DNA of 64,000 nt from assembly GCF_002269125.1 (NCBI RefSeq), contig NZ_NQKI01000008.1, forward strand, positions 62,001 through 126,000, read 5' to 3'. The position numbers were made by a program, and so were the translations under genes. Source of the DNA: Pseudomonas lundensis (GTDB taxonomy: Bacteria > Pseudomonadota > Gammaproteobacteria > Pseudomonadales > Pseudomonadaceae). The notes under the pieces were generated by a model. The model was not told the origin of the DNA, did not search any database, and saw only the letters and a list, made by a program, of their open reading frames with translations. How positions within the stretch are numbered: position 1 is the stretch's first letter; each line of letters begins with the position of its first letter. Below are positions 4,228-27,261 of this stretch, piece after piece.

Positions 4228-5127
4228 TCAGAGCGGCGTTTCTTCCTGCTGGATCACATCCTCAAGCAGCGTGCGCAGCAACCCCAATGTGGCTTGCTGA
4301 CGTTGCACATCGCGACACACCAACCCCACTTTCAAAGGCACCCGCGGTTCGCTGAGCGGTTTCCACAATAGCGCCTTGTCATCGTGCTCATGACGCGAGC
4401 GTCCCGGCAGAACCGTGGCCAATTTGGTGTGCGGCAAACTGTCGAGAATGCCGGCCATGTTGTTGAGCTCCGCCTGTACCTGAGGGCGGCGGCCCAGATT
4501 GGCCAATTGGCTCTGCCAGATTTGGCGCACCTGAAACTCTTCTCCTAACAGCAGCATTGGTAACTCTGCCGCTTGAGTCAGTGAGACTTTCTTGAATTCA
4601 CGCAGCGGGTGATCTGCCGGGATGACAAGTTGCAGCTCATCTTCGTACAACAGCATGCCGTGCAACCCCGGCTGACGCGGCGGCAGGTAGCTGATGCCGA
4701 TGTCGAGCGAGCCGTTGAGCAGGCGACGCTCGATCTCCAGCCCTGTCAATTCGTAAATCTGCACCACCAAGTGCGGTTGCGCCTGGCGCACGCGCTCCAA
4801 CATCTGCGGCACCAGACTGGTGTGTACCGTTTGCAGTACACCAATCGCAATCGTGCGCAGGGCCTGGCCCTGAAAGTTGCGCAAGGCTTCTTTGGCCCGC
4901 TGTAACCCGTCGAGCAGTGGCAGCGCGTGGTTATACAGGGTGTGCGCCGCCAGCGTGGGCAACAGGCGTTTGCTGCTGCGTTCGAACAGGCTTACATCAA
5001 GGTTGTGTTCGAGTTGGCGGATCTGTTGCGAGAGGGCCGGCTGCGAGATGGAAAGACGTTCGGCAGCACGCCCCACATGGCCTTCTTCATACACCGCAAC
5101 GAAATAACGCAGTTGCTTGAAATCCAT
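4228..5127 (-). CDS. LysR-family transcriptional regulator
   Basis: A 299-residue protein of normal LTTR length. The N-terminal winged helix-turn-helix (FVAVYEEGHVGRAAERLSIS, then QPALSQQIRQLE) is followed by a linker helix and a periplasmic-binding-fold effector domain from about residue 90. It is most like the CynR/BenM/CatR group. The effector is unknown. It is transcribed away from the class III aminotransferase gene (229 bp between the starts), which suggests it controls that gene. A perfect palindrome covers its own start codon. In P. fluorescens B16 a regulator and an aminotransferase near pqq were, as I recall, named pqqH and pqqI; I cannot confirm these are the same genes. Confidence 0.92.
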   Translation of the reverse strand: MDFKQLRYFVAVYEEGHVGRAAERLSISQPALSQQIRQLEHNLDVSLFERSSKRLLPTLAAHTLYNHALPLLDGLQRAKEALRNFQGQALRTIAIGVLQTVHTSLVPQMLERVRQAQPHLVVQIYELTGLEIERRLLNGSLDIGISYLPPRQPGLHGMLLYEDELQLVIPADHPLREFKKVSLTQAAELPMLLLGEEFQVRQIWQSQLANLGRRPQVQAELNNMAGILDSLPHTKLATVLPGRSRHEHDDKALLWKPLSEPRVPLKVGLVCRDVQRQQATLGLLRTLLEDVIQQEETPL

Positions 5128-18143: not shown

Positions 18144-18191
18144 ATGGTGGGCCCAGTAGGACTCGAACCTACGACCAAGGGATTATGAGTC
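18144..18191 (-). repeat. attachment repeat, tRNA(CAT) 3' fragment
   Basis: 48 bp matching 27184-27231 with two differences (18157 T versus C, 18171 A versus G). The two differences pair with each other in the T-arm stem, so the fragment derives from a once-functional tRNA, most likely the displaced 3' half of the host gene. Homology stops just past the anticodon (CAT). Confidence 0.9.
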
Positions 18192-18327: not shown

Positions 18328-18344
18328 CGATCTTGGAGCTAGGA

Positions 18345-19733
18345 ATGGCGCAGAAACTGGTTCACAGCAAGATAACAGCATTGAAAGCCACGCTCTCTGA
18401 GGCCTTGGAAGGGAAAGGGACGGGTTCTCTTCTCTTTGAACGCCGAGCTACGGGCGTTTTGGTCTATCTGAGTCTGCGCCGAGAGAAAAAGCAGGAGCGT
18501 CTAAAACTTGGGAACTATTCCGAAAAAACGTTGGTTGAGTGGCGAGCCTATGCCGCTGCGAAGTCGTTAGAGATTCGAGCCTTCCCGAGTATTGATGACT
18601 ATCAAAAAGCGGAAGAGGAGCGTCAACGCTCAACCCAACGTGCTGCGGATGTTGAGGCAAGGCAGGGAACGTTGGCTCAAATGCTGAATGCCTACGTTGA
18701 CGATATGGAGCGTAGGGGCAAGTCCAGTGCCAGGGCCGTGCGTGGTGCGCTAAAGCTGGATGTTCTCGATCCATTCCCTGATCTGTCGAAATGCAAGGCC
18801 AAGGAAGTCGAACCTAGCGATATTGCGAACATCCTGCGTCGCTGCCTAACTCGATCAGTCGCCAGTAAAGGACGGGGCGCCCGCTTGACCAAGGCATCAG
18901 CAACCAATGGTAAAAAGCGACAGGCAGATAAATTGCGCTCTTACCTTCAGGCGGCTTTTTCGTTTGGCCTTGCTAGCGATCTAAACCCGCTCCGTGCTGG
19001 TGACGCTGTTCAATATGGTCTCAAATCAAACCCCGCGCGTGACGTGCCAACGATTGAAGGCGCCAATCAGGCGAACACCTGGGCGCTTACAAAAGAAGAG
19101 CTGAAAGCGGTTGTTCTGGCCGTTGAAGGTCTACCTGCTCGGCGTAGTGCAATTGCAAAGGCGATGCTTTATCTCGCTGGGCAGCGTGTAGAAATGCTTT
19201 GTCGGGTCACTTGGGCAGACATCTATGACGATGGTGAGCATGGGGAAGTGATGCGGTTAATCGACCTCAAGGGCGGAAAAGGTACGCCGTCACGTGAGCA
19301 TCTGTTGCCGATGACTCAGCGACTCCGTGAGATCCTGTCGCCGCTACTAGCGCTTCAAGGGGCAGGCAAAGCACCTGGGCCATTCTCTCTGCGTGGAAAA
19401 GTCAGCATCACACCCGGTACTGCACTGGATATTTTCTCAGCGCTTGGGGATCAGCTTTCGACAAAGGGGGAAACTCGCCGTTTCACTTGGCGCACGTTGC
19501 GCGCAACTATAGAGACTCACTTAGCGTCCTTGGGTGTGAATCAGGAGCGCCGAGCATGGTTACTGTCACATGGTCGGTCAGGGGTGCAGGCAAAACACTA
19601 CGATAGGTGGAATTATCTACCGGAGAAGCGTGGGGATTTGGATAGGTGGGCGCGTTATCTGGATGAATTGTCGGGAATGCCGCAGAGTGCGGAAGTGGTG
19701 CAGTTACCGACCCGCAGCGTGGTAAATCAATGA
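18345..19733 (+). CDS. int: tyrosine recombinase, P4-type integrase
   Basis: About 462 residues, the size of P4-type integrases, with an N-terminal arm-binding domain (LFERRATGVLVYLSLRREKK), a core-binding domain and a C-terminal catalytic domain. Catalytic positions: arginine in AGQRVEML, arginine in TLRATIETHL, histidine in LLSHG and nucleophilic tyrosine in KHYDRW. The usual HxxR box reads RxxR, so its first histidine is replaced. ATG 18345 is preferred over TTG 18333 because GGAG sits 6 nt before it. It should insert and excise the element at the tRNA. Its stop overlaps the next gene (ATGA). Confidence 0.92.
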   Translation: MAQKLVHSKITALKATLSEALEGKGTGSLLFERRATGVLVYLSLRREKKQERLKLGNYSEKTLVEWRAYAAAKSLEIRAFPSIDDYQKAEEERQRSTQRAADVEARQGTLAQMLNAYVDDMERRGKSSARAVRGALKLDVLDPFPDLSKCKAKEVEPSDIANILRRCLTRSVASKGRGARLTKASATNGKKRQADKLRSYLQAAFSFGLASDLNPLRAGDAVQYGLKSNPARDVPTIEGANQANTWALTKEELKAVVLAVEGLPARRSAIAKAMLYLAGQRVEMLCRVTWADIYDDGEHGEVMRLIDLKGGKGTPSREHLLPMTQRLREILSPLLALQGAGKAPGPFSLRGKVSITPGTALDIFSALGDQLSTKGETRRFTWRTLRATIETHLASLGVNQERRAWLLSHGRSGVQAKHYDRWNYLPEKRGDLDRWARYLDELSGMPQSAEVVQLPTRSVVNQ

Positions 19734-20907: not shown

Positions 20908-21114
20908 ATGGTTGATTATAACCTGCACCCAGACCTGGCGCTTCAGCTGTGGTCAAAAAAACAAGTTTGCGGGCGGTTGGGCGTTTCGCCTGTCACCCTC
21001 TGGCGCTGGGTTTGTTCCGGGCACTTTCCAAAAGCTATTCAGTTGGGCCCTAGGCGTATCGCCTGGAGATCGTCGGTCGTGGAAGCCTTCTTAGCTAAAA
21101 CTGAGGGGGCTTAA
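20908..21114 (+). CDS. AlpA-family DNA-binding regulator
   Basis: A 68-residue MerR-like/AlpA helix-turn-helix protein: LWSKKQVCGRLGVSPVTLWR is the recognition region, followed by the WVCSGHFPKAIQLGPRRIAWR wing typical of AlpA. In P4-like satellites and cryptic prophages, relatives activate integrase or excision genes. It is the first gene of the replication block and is preceded by a strong but partly masked AAGGAG. Its target sites are not evident. Confidence 0.85.
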   Translation: MVDYNLHPDLALQLWSKKQVCGRLGVSPVTLWRWVCSGHFPKAIQLGPRRIAWRSSVVEAFLAKTEGA

Positions 21115-21116
21115 TC

Positions 21117-21233
21117 ATGGTGAAGACATTAACCCGCCTCCTTGGCGGGATGACACCGGCTTGTCTGAATTTTGCTCCGATGATCGAAAACATCGCGTTC
21201 GTAGTTCTACTGGGAGTAACTAGCTATGTCTGA
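21117..21233 (+). CDS. possible 38-aa peptide between the AlpA-like gene and the next gene
   Basis: An ATG 2 nt after the AlpA-like stop opens 38 codons, ending in a hydrophobic segment (IENIAFVVLLGVTSYV). It overlaps the next gene by 8 bp. The tight packing supports translation. However, the segment also contains a CCCGCC...GGCGGG hairpin and could be an untranslated leader. Confidence 0.35.
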   Translation: MVKTLTRLLGGMTPACLNFAPMIENIAFVVLLGVTSYV

Positions 21234-21489
21234 AGCCATCACCCTTCTAGACACCAGCACCGAGGCCCAAGTGCGTCGCGTGGGGGAGATCTTGCGCGAA
21301 CACAAGCCGACTACTGTTGAGTTGCGTGATTACTGGAATATCATGGCCCCGGCGGCGCGCATTTACACATTGCGACATGAGCTGGGGTGGGAAATTGCCA
21401 CAGTTCCTGAAACCGTTCGAGACGCGTTTGGACGTCCTCATAGAGGTGTTGGACGTTATGTGTTGATCCGGGAGGGCTCACCCGTATGA
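21226..21489 (+). CDS. small helix-turn-helix-like protein, unknown (87 aa)
   Basis: An 87-residue protein. The segment TTVELRDYWNIMAPAARIYTLR followed by HELGWEIATVPETVRDAFGR resembles the winged-helix fold of small phage proteins that recode or guide replication genes. The C-terminal RGVGRYVLI strand fits the wing. It overlaps the primase-helicase gene by 4 bp (ATGA), so it is translationally coupled to it. A replication-accessory or regulatory role is likely; function is not established. Confidence 0.75.
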   Translation: MSEAITLLDTSTEAQVRRVGEILREHKPTTVELRDYWNIMAPAARIYTLRHELGWEIATVPETVRDAFGRPHRGVGRYVLIREGSPV

Positions 21490-24191
21490 ACGCGCATCTA
21501 ACCCTTATCACAAGCTCTAACCCTGTTCGTTTGACTAAACAATTCCTAGTGGAAGATGGAAAACTGGTGAAGCAAGGCGCCGGACAAATGGTTGAAGGCC
21601 ACGCGAATGTAATAGAGGCCGCAACGCCTAACGCTTTGGTGGCGATTTTGTCGGAGCTACGAGAAAGTCAGGCGCTTTGCTACGGTCTGCCTATCGCCGG
21701 GTCTGCGCCAATTACCACTGCCTGCAATCTAGATAAAGCTGCTCCTGGGACTATTTCCCGTACTGCCGTGCATTTTGAATGGGCTCGCGCGGCAGGCTGG
21801 CTGATGCTCGACTACGATCCGGCACTTAGTGGTGAGGCACTTACACCTGAACAGTTCAGAGAGGCTATTTATTCGGCAGCACCAGCACTTCGCAATGCTC
21901 CATCGGTTTGGGGTTGCTCATCCTCAAGTATGTTGTTTGCTGATGGTCAGCAACTGGCGGGCATCCGTGGGCAGCGACTGTATATTCAAGTCGCTGACTC
22001 TCGTGATATTGAGCGTGCGGGTCGTGTGCTGTTTGAGCGTCTTTGGTTGGCTGGCTTTGGTTATATTGCAATAAGCAAATCGGGCGCCTTGCTGAAGCGT
22101 GCTCCGATTGATTCGAGTGTATGGCAACCGCACCGCCTCGACTTTGCAGCACCTCCTGTGTGTGTGTTTCCGGTTGAAGCCCGTCGCCCAGCATCATTAG
22201 TGCTGAATGGTGGCGCTGATCCGGTCATAACCTTGAGTGCAATTCCGTCATTAAATAGCGGCGAGCGCATGCAGCTTAAGGATCTGATGAGCGACGCGGC
22301 CTCAAAAATGGCCCAAGAACTGCACGATGTGCAAGTGGCTTGGATTGACAAGCGCATGGACGCACTCAATCAACTGCCGGAGTCTGAGCGTGAGGTCAGG
22401 CGCGCAACCTTCGAGCGGGCGGTCTGCGAGCACAAGTTATTCGGTGACTTCGAGTTAACTCACTCAAGCGGTGATTCTGTAACTGTTGGGCAGATACTAG
22501 ATAATCCGAATAAATGGCATGGCGAGCGTTTTGCTGATCCTCTAGAGCCGGAGTACAGCAGTAATGACCATCGCATTGCACAAGTAAATCTGCGCAGTGG
22601 TGGCAAGCCTACACTTTACAGTCATGCGCACGGCGGGCAGCGGTTTACGCTACATCGTGCCGTTCGCACCCTCAAAACTGCGGCAGGAGATTTGCCGCGT
22701 GTAATGAATGATGCGTTGGCGGTAGTGCGCGCTGATGGAGTCATTTTTGAGCGTGCGGGGGCGCTTGTCCGTGTGGCAGGTGGTGAGCTTATGGCTGTCG
22801 AACCAGCATGGTTACGCAATCATCTAGAAGAACAGTTTCAGTTCCAGCGGTTTGATCGTCGCACTGGTGATTACGTGGCAACCGACTGTCCTGGAGATTT
22901 GTCCGCGCGAATTATGGCTGCGCGAGGGGCATGGGGCGTGCCGGTAGTCGCTGGCGTTATTCATTCACCAGTTATGCGTCCAGATGGCTCTATTCTGGAG
23001 GTTCCGGGACACGATCATGCCACGGGCCTTTTGTATCTTAGCGACGATCCCGGTTTGCCGCCTGTTCGCATTCTAGGCCGTGATGCGCTGATAGATACCT
23101 TGCGCAGGGTCTGGGAGCCGTTCGAGCAATTTCCTTTTGCTGATGATCTAGCGCGAGGAGTGTTCATGTCGGCATTACTGACAACGGTTTGCCGAGCTGC
23201 GCTTGATACTGCCCCGGGCTTTCTGGTTCGAGCGCACTCCCCTGGTACAGGCAAAACTTTGCTTTCTGAATGCTTGATGATCCTTGCCGGAGCCAGCACC
23301 GCTGCGCTGCCGCTACCGGAGAAAAACCCTGAAGAAATCGAGAAACGCCTCGCAGCAAAACTACTGACGGGTTGTTCCGGGCTAATCCTCGATAACCTTG
23401 TTGGGTCAATCGATAACGCGGCGCTTTGCTCGATGCTAACCAGTTCAAGCCCGGAGGTTCGCATTCTGGGGCGTTCTGAAGTGGTGACATTACAAAATCG
23501 GGCGCTGTGGGTATTGAATGGTAATAACGTAGGGGCTGGGGGTGACACTTTCCGTCGTTTGCTCCCTATATCCCTCGACTCGCCGGAAAACCCTGAGCGG
23601 CGTCGCTTTGGATTTAACCCGCGTGCTCTGATTAGATCGCGGTTAGCTGAATATAGAGCTGATCTATTGAGTGTTCTCTCGACTTATCAAAGGGCAGGAG
23701 CGCCAGTGGTTGCGGCTGGTGGCCTCGGTAGCTTTGAGCAATGGGAATCTCTTGTGCGGCAGTGCTTATGCTGGCTAATCAGTGAGGGCGTTTGTCCGGC
23801 GCCTATGGCTGATCCTGCTGGGGTGCTGGAGTTGTCGCGGGCTGAAGATCCAGAGCACCAGAAGCTAACCCAGCTACTGAGCGCTTGGCATTCTGTGCAC
23901 GGAAGCAACCGTGTTTTTCTAAAGGAGCTGCAAACTAATTGTGAGGCAATGGGGCGTTTTGCTGATGTTGGGCATTTCACCAGTGCGACGACAGAGGAAC
24001 AGGCACTAAACGCAATCCTTGAGGAAGTAGCATTCCATAATGGGCGATTCAACACGCGGGCGTTTGCAGCATGGTTGAGACGAAATGCAGGCGTTATTGT
24101 GGAAGGTTTGCGATTGGAACAAGGCGCAAAAAGCGGTGGTACGGCTGTATGGCGTGTTCTGGTATCTAGAGAGAAAAGTGAAGTAGCTTAA
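21486..24191 (+). CDS. putative primase-helicase replication protein (901 aa)
   Basis: The largest gene of the element. The N-terminal part has an archaeo-eukaryotic-primase-like DxD (residues 109 and 111, WLMLDYDP) and a downstream SKSGALLKRAPIDSSVWQ block as in primase-polymerases. The C-terminal part is a P-loop ATPase: Walker A SPGTGKT with lysine 590, Walker B LILDNL with aspartate 636, and a paired arginine in DTFRRLLP that could be the arginine finger. The order primase-then-helicase matches replication proteins of satellites and small integrative elements. It probably initiates replication at the iteron block that starts 4 bp after its stop codon. Family assignment is by motif only. 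Confidence 0.75.
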   Translation: MNAHLTLITSSNPVRLTKQFLVEDGKLVKQGAGQMVEGHANVIEAATPNALVAILSELRESQALCYGLPIAGSAPITTACNLDKAAPGTISRTAVHFEWARAAGWLMLDYDPALSGEALTPEQFREAIYSAAPALRNAPSVWGCSSSSMLFADGQQLAGIRGQRLYIQVADSRDIERAGRVLFERLWLAGFGYIAISKSGALLKRAPIDSSVWQPHRLDFAAPPVCVFPVEARRPASLVLNGGADPVITLSAIPSLNSGERMQLKDLMSDAASKMAQELHDVQVAWIDKRMDALNQLPESEREVRRATFERAVCEHKLFGDFELTHSSGDSVTVGQILDNPNKWHGERFADPLEPEYSSNDHRIAQVNLRSGGKPTLYSHAHGGQRFTLHRAVRTLKTAAGDLPRVMNDALAVVRADGVIFERAGALVRVAGGELMAVEPAWLRNHLEEQFQFQRFDRRTGDYVATDCPGDLSARIMAARGAWGVPVVAGVIHSPVMRPDGSILEVPGHDHATGLLYLSDDPGLPPVRILGRDALIDTLRRVWEPFEQFPFADDLARGVFMSALLTTVCRAALDTAPGFLVRAHSPGTGKTLLSECLMILAGASTAALPLPEKNPEEIEKRLAAKLLTGCSGLILDNLVGSIDNAALCSMLTSSSPEVRILGRSEVVTLQNRALWVLNGNNVGAGGDTFRRLLPISLDSPENPERRRFGFNPRALIRSRLAEYRADLLSVLSTYQRAGAPVVAAGGLGSFEQWESLVRQCLCWLISEGVCPAPMADPAGVLELSRAEDPEHQKLTQLLSAWHSVHGSNRVFLKELQTNCEAMGRFADVGHFTSATTEEQALNAILEEVAFHNGRFNTRAFAAWLRRNAGVIVEGLRLEQGAKSGGTAVWRVLVSREKSEVA

Positions 24192-24194
24192 AAA

Positions 24195-24302
24195 GGTGGT
24201 TGTGGTGGTTGTTAAGGTTGTTTATTCCCTGCATGTTTAAACTGTCAGTTGACACTTTAGGGCTATCAGTAAAAAACAACCACCACAACCCATATAACCA
24301 CC
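24195..24302. other. iteron cluster, candidate replication origin
   Basis: Three 9-bp units in a row at 24195-24221 (GGTGGTTGT, GGTGGTTGT, TAAGGTTGT) face three inverted units at 24276-24302 (ACAACCACC, ACAACCCAT, ATAACCACC). The ~54 bp between is AT-rich. It lies immediately downstream of the primase-helicase gene. P4 primase binds GGTGAACA-type iterons, so the arrangement resembles a satellite origin. It could alternatively be a large hairpin. Confidence 0.55.
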
Positions 24303-24371
24303 TTTGTTCAGAAAGGTGTGTATGGATGTCCCCTATTTTGTGCATGGGAGGCACTGACCAATATGTCGCCT

Positions 24372-24479: not shown

Positions 24480-24773
24480 ATGGCTCGACAGCTTGTAAAC
24501 GCTTCGCTTAATCCGAGCGATCTGGAGTCGTTGGTTGGACTTCTTGAAGGTTTGACAAAAGACGTTGCATCTATCAAGGCAGACCTGGCTTTTCTTAAGT
24601 CAGAAAACATGGCGGCTAATCGAAAAATTGTTAGCGATAAGTTCGGTGAAATAGTGGCTAAAGGTATGGAGCACAACGCAAAAGCGTTAGCCAAACTTGC
24701 AAGCCAGCCTGCGCAAATCATTGAAAGGCTCACCCCTGACTTCAATGAGTACTTTGCTGGGAGCGCTCGCTAA
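24480..24773 (+). CDS. unknown small protein with coiled-coil (97 aa)
   Basis: A 97-residue protein, rich in charged and aliphatic residues, with a probable coiled-coil at residues 20-50 (LLEGLTKDVASIKADLAFLK). A -10-like TATAAT at 24438-24443 lies 37 bp upstream, suggesting its own promoter. It is the first of three tightly overlapping genes: its TAA overlaps the next ATG by 1 bp (TAATG). The presence of a relaxosome- or copy-control-like protein is possible; I recognise no family. Confidence 0.65.
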   Translation: MARQLVNASLNPSDLESLVGLLEGLTKDVASIKADLAFLKSENMAANRKIVSDKFGEIVAKGMEHNAKALAKLASQPAQIIERLTPDFNEYFAGSAR

Positions 24774-24910
24774 TGGCTGCCGAAATCCGTAAGCCTGGGC
24801 GTCCTGTGGGCACCAGTAACCGCAACCTACTGCAAAGCCTGTTGCACCGTATGGCTCTAATCGAGGCCAGCCTGGGGATCATCATGGTTCGCTTGGAGGC
24901 CCGCGCATGA
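24773..24910 (+). CDS. unknown 45-aa peptide
   Basis: A 45-codon gene starting at TAATG and ending at ATGA, coupled on both sides. The N-terminus is basic (AAEIRKPGRPVGTSNRN), like an AT-hook (KPGRP), and the C-terminus is an amphipathic helix. It could be a small DNA-binding accessory. No homologue recognised. Confidence 0.6.
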   Translation: MAAEIRKPGRPVGTSNRNLLQSLLHRMALIEASLGIIMVRLEARA

Positions 24911-25431
24911 GCACTGTCGAATTGATTGCCAGCCATGAACAGCAACTAATCGACGCCGAACTGTTGCTAGCATCCCTCAATGAGCAATGGGAGTCAGCTT
25001 GCCGAGCCGGTGAAGACGTAGCGACGCTAGAGGATCAAATTGATAGCACAGCACGGCTAACCAAACGCCTAAACCTTCGCCTGGAAGCCCTGCATTTGCA
25101 AGCCGAGGTCGAGGCGCAACAAGCGAAAGTCGATAAAGCCAATGAGCAAGCCGCTGATGCAATCGCAGCTCTCGAACGGCTAGTAAATCATCGCAAGGCT
25201 ATTTCCGCTTTGGTCGCCAAGTTAAAGCCATTGATCGAGGCTCATACCGATGAGTTCACCTTAGCTTTCAATTCAGCTCAGGCAGCCGGGCGCTATGTCC
25301 CGCTTGCTGGTGTTCGTTCTGCGTTGGAGCAAATCCAGGATCTGGAATTGGGAAATGTAAGCGCGCTAAACAATCTGATTGGCACTCGGCAGACCCTAGC
25401 TATGGGGCTGGCAACCGCTGGGCATATCTGA
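24907..25431 (+). CDS. unknown coiled-coil protein (174 aa)
   Basis: A 174-residue, almost entirely helical protein with long heptad-like stretches (residues 10-110), very rich in Ala, Leu and Glu. No signal peptide, membrane segment or catalytic motif is seen. It overlaps the preceding 45-aa gene by 4 bp. It may be a structural or regulatory partner encoded by the element; function unknown. Confidence 0.7.
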   Translation: MSTVELIASHEQQLIDAELLLASLNEQWESACRAGEDVATLEDQIDSTARLTKRLNLRLEALHLQAEVEAQQAKVDKANEQAADAIAALERLVNHRKAISALVAKLKPLIEAHTDEFTLAFNSAQAAGRYVPLAGVRSALEQIQDLELGNVSALNNLIGTRQTLAMGLATAGHI

Positions 25432-25480
25432 TTTAGACGCCCGATCCTAATCCGGTCGGGCAATACCAAGGGGGCGGGAG

Positions 25481-25741
25481 ATGCAGGCAATCGATGAGTT
25501 TGAATTTGAAGACGATCAGCCGAGCGATGAGCAGTTGCTTATCTGGGCTATCGAGGCGGCAGAAGTAATGCCGCCAAGGCGCTGGCTGGCACGTTGGGGC
25601 GGTTTCCTGACTCCTCGCATGTACCGGTGCAATGGTAAGACAAAGCAGCGCTACAACGATTTAGTGAAGGGCATAGCGAAGGCCACTAAACCAGTGCCAG
25701 ACCGGGAGGCCACGCCTTATCCGGGAGTGATGTGGGCTTGA
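25481..25741 (+). CDS. unknown acidic-then-basic small protein (86 aa)
   Basis: An 86-residue protein with an acidic N-terminus (DEFEFEDDQPSDEQ) and a basic, Trp-rich middle (PPRRWLARWGGFLTPRMYR). AAGGGGG precedes the ATG by 7-8 nt. It is the last plus-strand gene and converges with the lipoprotein gene. No family recognised. Confidence 0.6.
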   Translation: MQAIDEFEFEDDQPSDEQLLIWAIEAAEVMPPRRWLARWGGFLTPRMYRCNGKTKQRYNDLVKGIAKATKPVPDREATPYPGVMWA

Positions 25742-26636: not shown

Positions 26637-27002
26637 TTAGTTTGTGGTTGAGTTGTAAGGGTTTTGTCCCTCGTTGAACGTAAAGTTAATTACTGTGTCG
26701 TTACGAATCAGCACGTCTAGAGTTTTCTGGGTGCCGGTGGTGGTGACTTTCATGGTGACGATATAGCTCTGTGCGTGAGCAGAGCCGTTTGCGTAGGTGT
26801 AGACCCACTTTTCATCGGTGTCGTTGACTGGGCTTTTACTGAAGGGGTCGCCAAACAGGGCTTTAAGCTCTTTTGTTGTCGTCTTTCCTTTGATGATGCT
26901 AGCTACGTTCTCAGATGGGAAATCTCTACCGCTAGTGTAGTGGGAGGTAGCGCAACCGCTAAGCGTCAGGCTCATTGCCAGTACTGCCAGTACCTTTCTC
27001 AT
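26637..27002 (-). CDS. BamE/SmpA-like lipoprotein (121 aa), element cargo
   Basis: Signal peptide with lipobox LSGC (cysteine 17). The mature domain has the SmpA/OmlA-type order: IIKGKTTTKELKALFGDP turn, then a WVYTYANG strand and two further strands. This is the BamE fold, but the gene is not the housekeeping bamE. Such copies occur on prophages and satellites. It is the first gene of the minus-strand cargo group and may act on outer-membrane protein assembly or phage receptors. Confidence 0.75.
   Translation of the reverse strand: MRKVLAVLAMSLTLSGCATSHYTSGRDFPSENVASIIKGKTTTKELKALFGDPFSKSPVNDTDEKWVYTYANGSAHAQSYIVTMKVTTTGTQKTLDVLIRNDTVINFTFNEGQNPYNSTTN

Positions 27003-27183: not shown

Positions 27184-27261
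<78 letters not shown>

What the first reader, a model, noticed from the sequence alone, without database searches (positions are those of the whole stretch)
24192..24305. Inverted arrays of 9-bp iterons after a primase-helicase gene: candidate new origin
Three consecutive units of GGTGGTTGT type face three inverted units across ~54 AT-rich bp, starting 4 bp after the stop of the element's primase-helicase. The strict 9-bp phasing on both sides is hard to explain as a terminator. P4 origins use GGTGAACA-type iterons, so this may be a related but distinct initiator-origin pair.
Basis: partly seen in the sequence, partly recalled or inferred. Interest (0 to 1): 0.65.

Follow-up and report, generated by a model that had tools for sequence, protein, structure and literature searches.

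The report
Paired iteron origin after primase-helicase gene
Just behind a replication gene in a 9-kb mobile DNA element sits a mirrored set of 9-base repeats that very probably marks where the element starts copying itself; the same layout with different repeat 'words' recurs behind dozens of related genes, which opens a way to read how such proteins recognise their own origins.

Summary
The repeats are real: three 9-bp units at 24195-24221 face three inverted units at 24276-24302 across 54 AT-rich bp, right after the stop of a 901-aa primase-helicase in a 9.04-kb element inserted in tRNA-Met. The letters differ between relatives, but the layout (G-rich 9-bp units, AT-rich gap, inverted units) recurs at the 3' end of homologous helicase genes: it beats all own shuffles in 52 of 77 loci (window included; two look like plain hairpins), controls 5 of 64 upstream and 6 of 77 mid-gene. 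It goes with the helicase half even where the window's primase half is not found, and repeat sequence tracks the C-terminal domain. In a published homologue, RepA of Streptomyces plasmid pWTY27, the footprints fall on the equivalent inverted pair and deleting the region abolishes replication. So this is very probably the element's origin, bound by its own initiator; nothing was tested in this element itself. The principle is known from SaPI/PICI islands, but the one E. coli PICI initiator and the P4 initiator tested are not detectably related, and Pfam/NCBIfam gave no match to the protein. I found no description of the family-wide repeat diversification in the open-licence papers searched.

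The parts
18144..18191 (.). left attachment repeat (copy of the 3' part of tRNA-Met)
   Evidence: 46 of 48 bases identical to 27184-27231; the flanks joined without the element match uninterrupted over all 140 bases in 10 of 59 genomes of the genus, own genome among the 59
18333..19733 (+). tyrosine integrase
   Evidence: Pfam PF00589 E 2.3e-06, phrog_1 E 7e-29
20908..21114 (+). AlpA-like regulator
   Evidence: Pfam PF05930 E 1e-07
21226..21489 (+). winged helix-turn-helix protein, overlapping the primase-helicase start by 4 bases
   Evidence: Pfam PF14090 HTH_39 E 3.5e-12
21486..24191 (+). 901-aa primase-helicase (initiator): N-terminal primase, D5/SF3-type helicase, C-terminal winged helix
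   Evidence: phrog_16593 'DNA primase' for 4-381 and phrog_29234 for 395-892; AlphaFold2 mean pLDDT 86.7; PDB matches within 390-897: 7ola Z 13.8, rmsd 5.0, 317 aligned; 7pds Z 13.0, rmsd 8.4, 361 aligned; 8apl Z 13.8, rmsd 7.9, 381 aligned
24195..24221 (+). left iteron array: GGTGGTTGT GGTGGTTGT TAAGGTTGT
24222..24275 (.). 54-bp AT-rich spacer, proposed melting region
   Evidence: sequence; in the family the spacer has more AT than its locus in 50 of 52
24243..24254 (.). central dyad TGTCA-GT-TGACA, 21 bp from each array
   Evidence: the same symmetric dyad in 5 of 45 spacers (the window is one of the 45 but not of the 5)
24276..24302 (-). right iteron array (inverted): GGTGGTTAT ATGGGTTGT GGTGGTTGT read on the minus strand
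27184..27231 (.). right attachment repeat inside tRNA-Met (27185-27261, minus strand)

Best explanation
24195-24302 is the replication origin (oriV) of a 9.04-kb integrative element. The C-terminal winged-helix domains of the 901-aa initiator bind the 9-bp units, three per arm. Because the arms are inverted, two helicase assemblies form facing each other, open the AT-rich 54-bp spacer by ATP-driven strand separation, and the N-terminal primase lays down primers on both strands so that host polymerase copies the excised circle in both directions. Shown here: layout, conservation with 9-bp phasing, linkage to the helicase half, co-variation of repeats with the C-terminal domain. Shown by others for a homologue (pWTY27 RepA): specific binding to the equivalent inverted pair, need of the region for replication, evidence for bidirectional replication. 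Inferred: number of protein subunits, spacer melting, priming sites, activity in this element.
For: Arrays at the gene's 3' end beat all 30 own shuffles in 52 of 77 loci (window included); upstream control 5 of 64, mid-gene 6 of 77. At score 15 or more: 48 of 77 vs 0 of 64, 0 of 77 and 2 of 2310 shuffles. Scanning each whole stretch, the best inverted pair falls there in 52 of 77 (not quite the same 52), 7.1 expected by length. Arm periodicity peaks at 9 bp (z 22.9 against base shuffles of the arms). 29 of the 52 have no match to this protein's primase half in the same frame. Repeat distance tracks the C-terminal domain with the helicase core held constant (partial r 0.197, p 0.004), not the reverse (0.023, p 0.36), 39 loci. 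pWTY27 RepA is homologous (tblastn 27.9%, E 6e-25); its DNase I footprints 405-447 and 462-509 equal L049:4488-4530 and 4426-4473, which cover the inverted pair 4501-4530 / 4433-4462 directly 3' of repA; the 300 bp there are needed for replication. Two Psychrobacter plasmids carry gene and arrays; in the 6.5-kb one none of the other three listed genes is named for replication, though that gene table is incomplete. The helicase half folds like SaPI5 primase-helicase and PriRep1 with dsDNA.
Against: No experiment on this element. 25 of 77 loci do not pass the score: L005, L008, L010, L019, L025, L030, L033, L039, L040, L042, L044, L052, L059-L065, L072, L074-L076, L079, L081. Of these, arrays are visible by eye in L005, L025, L030 and L040, a left half only in L033, L042 and L044, and an inverted repeat lies further out in L060 (+97) and L074 (+695). 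Cereibacter pC (L010) and L019 showed none by eye, nor did phage TPWB-08 (L008); the rest, including four large-phage homologues (L061, L063-L065) and Legionella (L052), fail by score and were not read by eye. Two of the 52 passes (L031, L077) look like ordinary hairpins. In pWTY27 a 149-bp piece (382-530) holding the footprints did not restore replication, so the inner pair alone is not sufficient. Two of the window's six units are clearly degenerate. The Mantel correlations are modest.
Confidence: 0.86

Rival explanations
1. Origin, but read as a folded structure: the two arms extrude a long hairpin (cruciform) that the initiator recognises by shape, as proposed for archaeal pRN1.
For: The single strand folds better than its shuffles (-47.8 kcal/mol, z -3.57, RNA parameters); a 100-bp stem-loop 3' of orf904 is essential in pRN1 and the authors extend the idea to such proteins in phages; the pWTY27 authors also suggest a stem-loop.
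Against: Arms share 9-bp direct phasing (z 22.9), which a hairpin does not need; the long arms in the window are only 77% complementary; the G-rich strand is on the left in 43 of 52, which a hairpin would not require.
Confidence: 0.1
2. Transcription terminator or attenuator of the primase-helicase operon.
For: It lies just after a stop codon and can fold. The terminator scan does not list it, but that scan only allows loops of 3-8 bases and so cannot test it.
Against: Spacers are 20-144 bp, 30 or more without the two short hairpins, and no long T-run follows in the window; arrays also lie inside the reading frame (L022, L045, L047, L071, L086); separate terminator-like hairpins lie, by eye, between stop and array in L005, L006, L007, L030 and L049 (sequences); 9-bp phasing is unexplained.
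Confidence: 0.02
3. Operator or partition (centromere) site bound by the initiator or a small DNA-binding protein, controlling copy number or segregation rather than firing replication.
For: Iterons commonly also serve in copy control (general knowledge, recalled); two small DNA-binding proteins are encoded upstream.
Against: In pWTY27 loss of the region abolishes replication; arrays follow the helicase half across plasmids and integrated elements.
Confidence: 0.02

Closest known systems
Streptomyces plasmid pWTY27 repA/repB-iteron locus (PMC3583192; read: abstract, passages, sections 7 and 8)
   Same: RepA is homologous to the helicase half; inverted GTGGGAA-type units directly 3' of the gene, G-rich arm first; protein binds both arms and the region is needed for replication.
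   Different: Primase is a separate gene (RepB); an additional outer inverted pair exists; unit sequence differs.
SaPI / PICI Rep (Pri-Rep) and ori (PMC6092414 and PMC7581432; read: passages)
   Same: [quoted passage not shown] SaPI5 primase-helicase and PriRep1 are among the closest folds (that PriRep1 is of SaPI type is recalled); int-AlpA-primase-helicase order as in Gram-negative PICIs.
   Different: No detectable sequence relation to the one PICI initiator tested, EcCICFT073 (BLASTP E 0.73; profile -0.4 bits), which carries D5_N/DUF5906/Pox_D5 where this protein has no Pfam hit; its iterons are CTGTCTACC-type in mixed orientation.
pRN1 orf904 replicon (PMC4234260; read: abstract, passages, section 18 part 1)
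   Same: One protein with primase, helicase and C-terminal winged helix; essential inverted element just 3' of its gene.
   Different: Authors report a stem-loop without iterons; here units repeat at 9 bp.
Satellite phage P4 alpha / crr / ori1
   Same: crr lies directly 3' of alpha and holds type 1 repeats in both orientations, some pairs 9 bp apart (annotation).
   Different: alpha scores 0.6 bits (helicase half) against this family; P4 has a second region, ori, about 4.5 kb from crr.
SCCmec Cch2 (PMC7581432, passages)
   Same: Helicase binds repeats just downstream of its gene through its C-terminal domain.
   Different: Binding needs the direct repeats (AAGTG iterons); [quoted passage not shown]

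Membership tests
pWTY27-type RepA/3' inverted-iteron replicon | initiator homologous to pWTY27 RepA | tested here: met
   tblastn 27.9% over 441-891, E 6e-25; shared PHROGs 29234, 10537 and 19930
pWTY27-type RepA/3' inverted-iteron replicon | inverted arrays of short G-rich units directly 3' of the gene | tested here: met
pWTY27-type RepA/3' inverted-iteron replicon | region required for autonomous replication and bound by the initiator | not testable with these tools
   shown for pWTY27 only
pWTY27-type RepA/3' inverted-iteron replicon | separate primase gene repB | tested here: not met
   primase is fused in the 901-aa protein; fused and split forms both occur among relatives, so I treat this as a difference of form
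PICI (phage-inducible chromosomal island) | int, AlpA, pri-rep in order, ori 3' of rep with two iteron sets around an AT-rich region | tested here: met
   PICI definition from passages
PICI (phage-inducible chromosomal island) | Pri-Rep of the PICI lineage | tested here: not met
   against one PICI only, EcCICFT073: BLASTP E 0.73, profile -0.4 bits
PICI (phage-inducible chromosomal island) | phage late/packaging genes such as capsid or terS (frequent, not obligatory) | tested here: not met
   the three ORFs scanned after the array (24480-25741) have no Pfam or PHROG match
PICI (phage-inducible chromosomal island) | helper-phage induction and packaging | not testable with these tools
   needs experiment
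P4-like satellite | alpha-type initiator | tested here: not met
   P4 alpha 0.6 bits vs helicase-half profile, -2.1 bits vs primase-half profile
D5/SF3-type self-loading helicases (fold) | fold of the helicase domain | tested here: met
   7ola Z 13.8 (rmsd 5.0, 317 aligned), 8apl Z 13.8 (rmsd 7.9, 381 aligned), 7pds Z 13.0 (rmsd 8.4, 361 aligned, reaching residue 897)
Archaeo-eukaryotic primase (N-terminal half) | primase fold and catalytic Asp pair | tested here: inconclusive
   phrog_16593 'DNA primase' E 4.5e-64; Foldseek whole-model match to AsfvPrimPol E 1e-10 but TM about 0.24; Asp109/Asp111 invariant in the 16 aligned sequences, the DxD motif being recalled knowledge

The most novel reading that the evidence does not exclude
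A widespread, unnamed family of origin-initiator pairs spanning plasmids and integrative elements of Pseudomonadota and plasmids of Actinomycetota (possibly one archaeal plasmid). A D5/SF3 helicase without a matching Pfam or NCBIfam model carries its own origin as a 3' cassette of two inverted arrays, typically 3 x 9 bp, swaps primase modules freely, and evolves new iteron specificity by changing its C-terminal winged helix together with the array, so that related elements become compatible in one cell.
Probability: 0.6. Interest if true: 0.7.

Novelty: new variant of a known kind. Interest (0 to 1): 0.57.

Why it matters
[quoted passage not shown] This family, including a plasmid published in 2012, suggests it is wider. 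Some 45-50 natural protein-repeat pairs with conserved geometry but different words make the recognition code of this winged helix directly testable, give predicted origins for plasmids and elements, and supply possible mutually compatible vector origins. Because the protein has no Pfam match, element surveys that name primases by Pfam models, such as those described in PMC10803314 and PMC10111431 (passages), would probably not recognise it (inference).

Tried and rejected
Rejected: terminator (see rivals). P4-derived origin: no detectable relation of the initiators. PICI membership: order and origin plan fit, initiator and cargo do not, helper dependence untested. Led nowhere or gave little: the first genome-contig scan with the single protein found no relative (the alignment found 16); a viral-contig scan gave two relatives; the PDB sequence search gave one meaningless match; NCBIfam none for three proteins; the promoter scan found fewer sites than shuffles and its terminator part cannot see long loops; single-word counts in spacers were not clearly enriched (TGTCA/TGACA in 11 of 45 spacers, shuffle maximum 12), only the symmetric placement stood out. 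Papers on Psychrobacter plasmid pA32H2 and Saccharopolyspora pCM32 were not found in the library. Claims about what is not in print rest, in an open-licence library only. The VIA list barely tests the N-terminal half (note).

Rows dropped: of 87 sources (86 loci and the window), 77 were tested. Removed: copies of the window (L001, L002, L066), a contig ending 101 bp after the stop (L003, L011), duplicates (L004 of L012, L023 of L035), and loci without the helicase half (L009, L028, L082). Near-duplicates kept: L007/L027, L029/L035, L034/L036. For spacer words 7 of the 52 were dropped by eye (L013, L021, L024, L031, L041, L073, L077), leaving 45. For the Mantel test 39 of the 52 were used: dropped those seven, also L049 (pWTY27), L054, L055, L056 and L086, and arms over 60 bases. 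The window's own dyad is not in the 5 of 45, because the script's arms for the window were the inner 16 bp. With 30 shuffles each, about 2 of 77 would exceed by chance.

Full report
OBSERVATION. Stop codon TAA ends at 24191; three 9-bp units follow at 24195-24221 and three inverted ones at 24276-24302, around 54 AT-rich bp. One unit in each arm is clearly degenerate. The best ungapped inverted pair in the 300 bp after the stop scores 16, against a maximum of 12 in 400 dinucleotide shuffles. The tandem GGTGGTTGT pair is unique in the genome.

ELEMENT. The gene belongs to a 9.04-kb element. A 48-bp repeat (46 of 48 identical) at 18144-18191 and 27184-27231 is the 3' part of tRNA-Met. A 140-base query joining the outer flanks matches without interruption over its whole length in 10 of 59 genomes of the genus (the window's own among the 59), while the own genome gives the two halves apart. 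The element reads int, a 205-aa protein, AlpA-like, HTH_39, 901-aa protein, array, then three ORFs without Pfam or PHROG match and two minus-strand ORFs without Pfam match.

THE PROTEIN. It has no Pfam hit even at E 1 and no NCBIfam hit at E 1. PHROGs assign the first 381 residues to a 'DNA primase' family and 395-892 to a family of unknown function. An AlphaFold2 model from 16 aligned sequences (mean pLDDT 86.7, pTM 0.64) matches D5/SF3-type helicases within 390-897: SaPI5 primase-helicase 7ola Z 13.8, rmsd 5.0, 317 aligned; vaccinia D5 8apl Z 13.8, rmsd 7.9, 381 aligned; PriRep1 with dsDNA 7pds Z 13.0, rmsd 8.4, 361 aligned. The last 90 residues are three helices and two strands; reading this as a winged helix is mine.

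CONSERVATION. Seen first by eye: the homologues of a Pseudomonadaceae genome (L004, named Pseudomonas oryzagri as L012) and of Psychrobacter pA32H2 and pA17P3 carry differently spelled inverted G-rich arrays just after the gene. Systematic test: of 87 sources held, 77 non-redundant ones, the window included, have the helicase half. A gapped inverted-pair score in the stretch from the end of the conserved domain to 350 bp after the stop exceeds all 30 own shuffles in 52 of 77. Control stretches of equal length exceed in 5 of 64 (upstream) and 6 of 77 (mid-gene). At score 15 or more: 48 of 77, 0 of 64, 0 of 77, and 2 of 2310 shuffles. Scanning each whole stretch, the best inverted pair falls at the gene's 3' end in 52 of 77, with 7.1 expected by length; this set is not identical to the first. 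L024, L054 and L060 begin 92-100 bp after the stop and run past my limit, and L074 has one at +695. Two of the 52 (L031, L077) are short-loop hairpins, not arrays.

GEOMETRY. Pooled arms (86) match themselves at lag 9 in 54.4% of positions against 31.5% in base shuffles of the arms (z 22.9); lag 10 is second (z 7.9). The best lag of a left arm is 9 in 28, 10 in 10, 8 in 3 and 12 in 1 of 42. The G-rich strand comes first in 43 of 52. Spacers (median 61 bp) have more AT than their locus in 50 of 52. In 5 of 45 spacers a TGTCA...TGACA dyad sits symmetrically (within 6 bases); shuffles give at most 1 for this word and at most 3 for any word in 300 trials. Plain counts of the word are not clearly above chance. 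The window has the dyad centred, 21 bp from each array. What binds it is unknown.

WHAT THE ARRAY FOLLOWS. 23 of the 52 (window included) share the window's primase half, 29 show no match to it in the same frame. Among the latter are helicases fused to Prim-Pol/PriCT_2 (L051) or Prim-Pol (L053) and stand-alone helicases beside a separate primase gene (L049, L054, L056, L057). So the array goes with the helicase half. Among 39 loci with clean arms, repeat distance correlates with distance of the C-terminal domain (r 0.242, p 0.001) and less with the helicase core (r 0.146, p 0.014). With the core held constant the C-terminal link remains (0.197, p 0.004); with the C-terminal domain held constant the core link vanishes (0.023, p 0.36). 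L034 and L036, two copies in one genome (handle G577), differ by 17% in the core and 46% in the C-terminal domain, and have unrelated repeats.

EXPERIMENT ON A HOMOLOGUE. pWTY27 RepA matches residues 441-891 (27.9%, E 6e-25). Wang et al. 2012 (PMC3583192; abstract, passages, sections 7 and 8 read) report that the 300 bp at 321-620 are needed for replication, that RepA protects 405-447 and 462-509, and that the locus replicates bidirectionally, inferred from its propagation in linear form. On the record, repA runs on the minus strand and stops at 621, so this region is directly 3' of the gene. The two footprints, converted to L049:4488-4530 and 4426-4473, cover the arms 4501-4530 and 4433-4462 of an inverted pair with 38 bp between, with the G-rich arm first as in the window. 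Against a simple reading: a 149-bp piece (382-530) did not restore replication, so more than the inner pair is needed there.

MECHANISM. Inference from these facts: winged helices dock on 9-bp units, inverted arms place two helicase assemblies face to face, the spacer opens, the fused primase starts both strands. [quoted passage not shown]

COMPARISON. PICI origins share the plan (PMC6092414 passages). I compared one: EcCICFT073 Pri-Rep has no detectable sequence relation and different domains, and its iterons lie in mixed orientation. P4 alpha likewise scores 0.6 bits. Of 11 relatives whose upstream ORFs were listed, one long candidate ORF was scanned in 10; 8 of these are phage-type integrases. 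Of 10 small or mid-sized upstream ORFs scanned, 3 are AlpA/HTH_17 proteins. So the int-regulator-initiator-origin core recurs in part of the family.

AGAINST. 25 of 77 fail the score (listed in the Against line). By eye, L005, L025, L030 and L040 do have arrays, and L033, L042 and L044 show only a left half. Cereibacter pC (L010), phage TPWB-08 (L008) and L019 show none by eye; the others were judged by score alone. Nothing was tested in this element itself.

VERDICT. Very probably the element's origin; a distinct, apparently unnamed lineage of a known design; moderate interest because it supplies many natural initiator-repeat pairs.

Noticed in passing
window 18144-18191 vs 27184-27231: The two mismatches between the attachment repeats (T/C at position 14, A/G at 28) would form one compensated base pair of the tRNA T-stem, so the displaced copy still keeps the stem.
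   Followed up: partly
tRNA-Met site at window 27185-27261; genomes: Some other genomes of the genus (for example G1500, G1518, G1522) also show the flank-plus-tRNA query split in two places, suggesting this tRNA-Met is a common integration site.
   Followed up: no
window 24243-24254; L015, L016, L046, L050, L067: Symmetric TGTCA...TGACA dyad in the middle of the origin spacer; possible site for a second protein such as the upstream HTH_39 protein, or for priming.
   Followed up: partly
L034 and L036 (both in handle G577): Two related helicases in one genome with nearly the same core, a diverged C-terminal domain and unrelated iterons: a natural specificity switch.
   Followed up: partly
L009:800-1040 (Shewanella phage SFCi1): A primase of the window's N-terminal type joined to a different C-terminal half has inverted GTGCACC-type repeats upstream of the gene.
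   Followed up: no
L060 (Methanothrix plasmid pGP6), about 97 bp after the stop: A long inverted repeat (score 45) follows the helicase gene of this archaeal plasmid, reminiscent of the pRN1 arrangement.
   Followed up: no
L074, about 695 bp after the stop: A GCAGGGTTT-type array lies far downstream rather than directly after the stop, so the cassette may be separable from the gene.
   Followed up: no
window 24480-24773, 24907-25431, 25481-25741: Three ORFs after the origin without any Pfam or PHROG match; possible cargo.
   Followed up: no
window 26976-26993: Two perfect tandem copies of TGCCAGTAC near the start of a minus-strand ORF close to the right end of the element.
   Followed up: no
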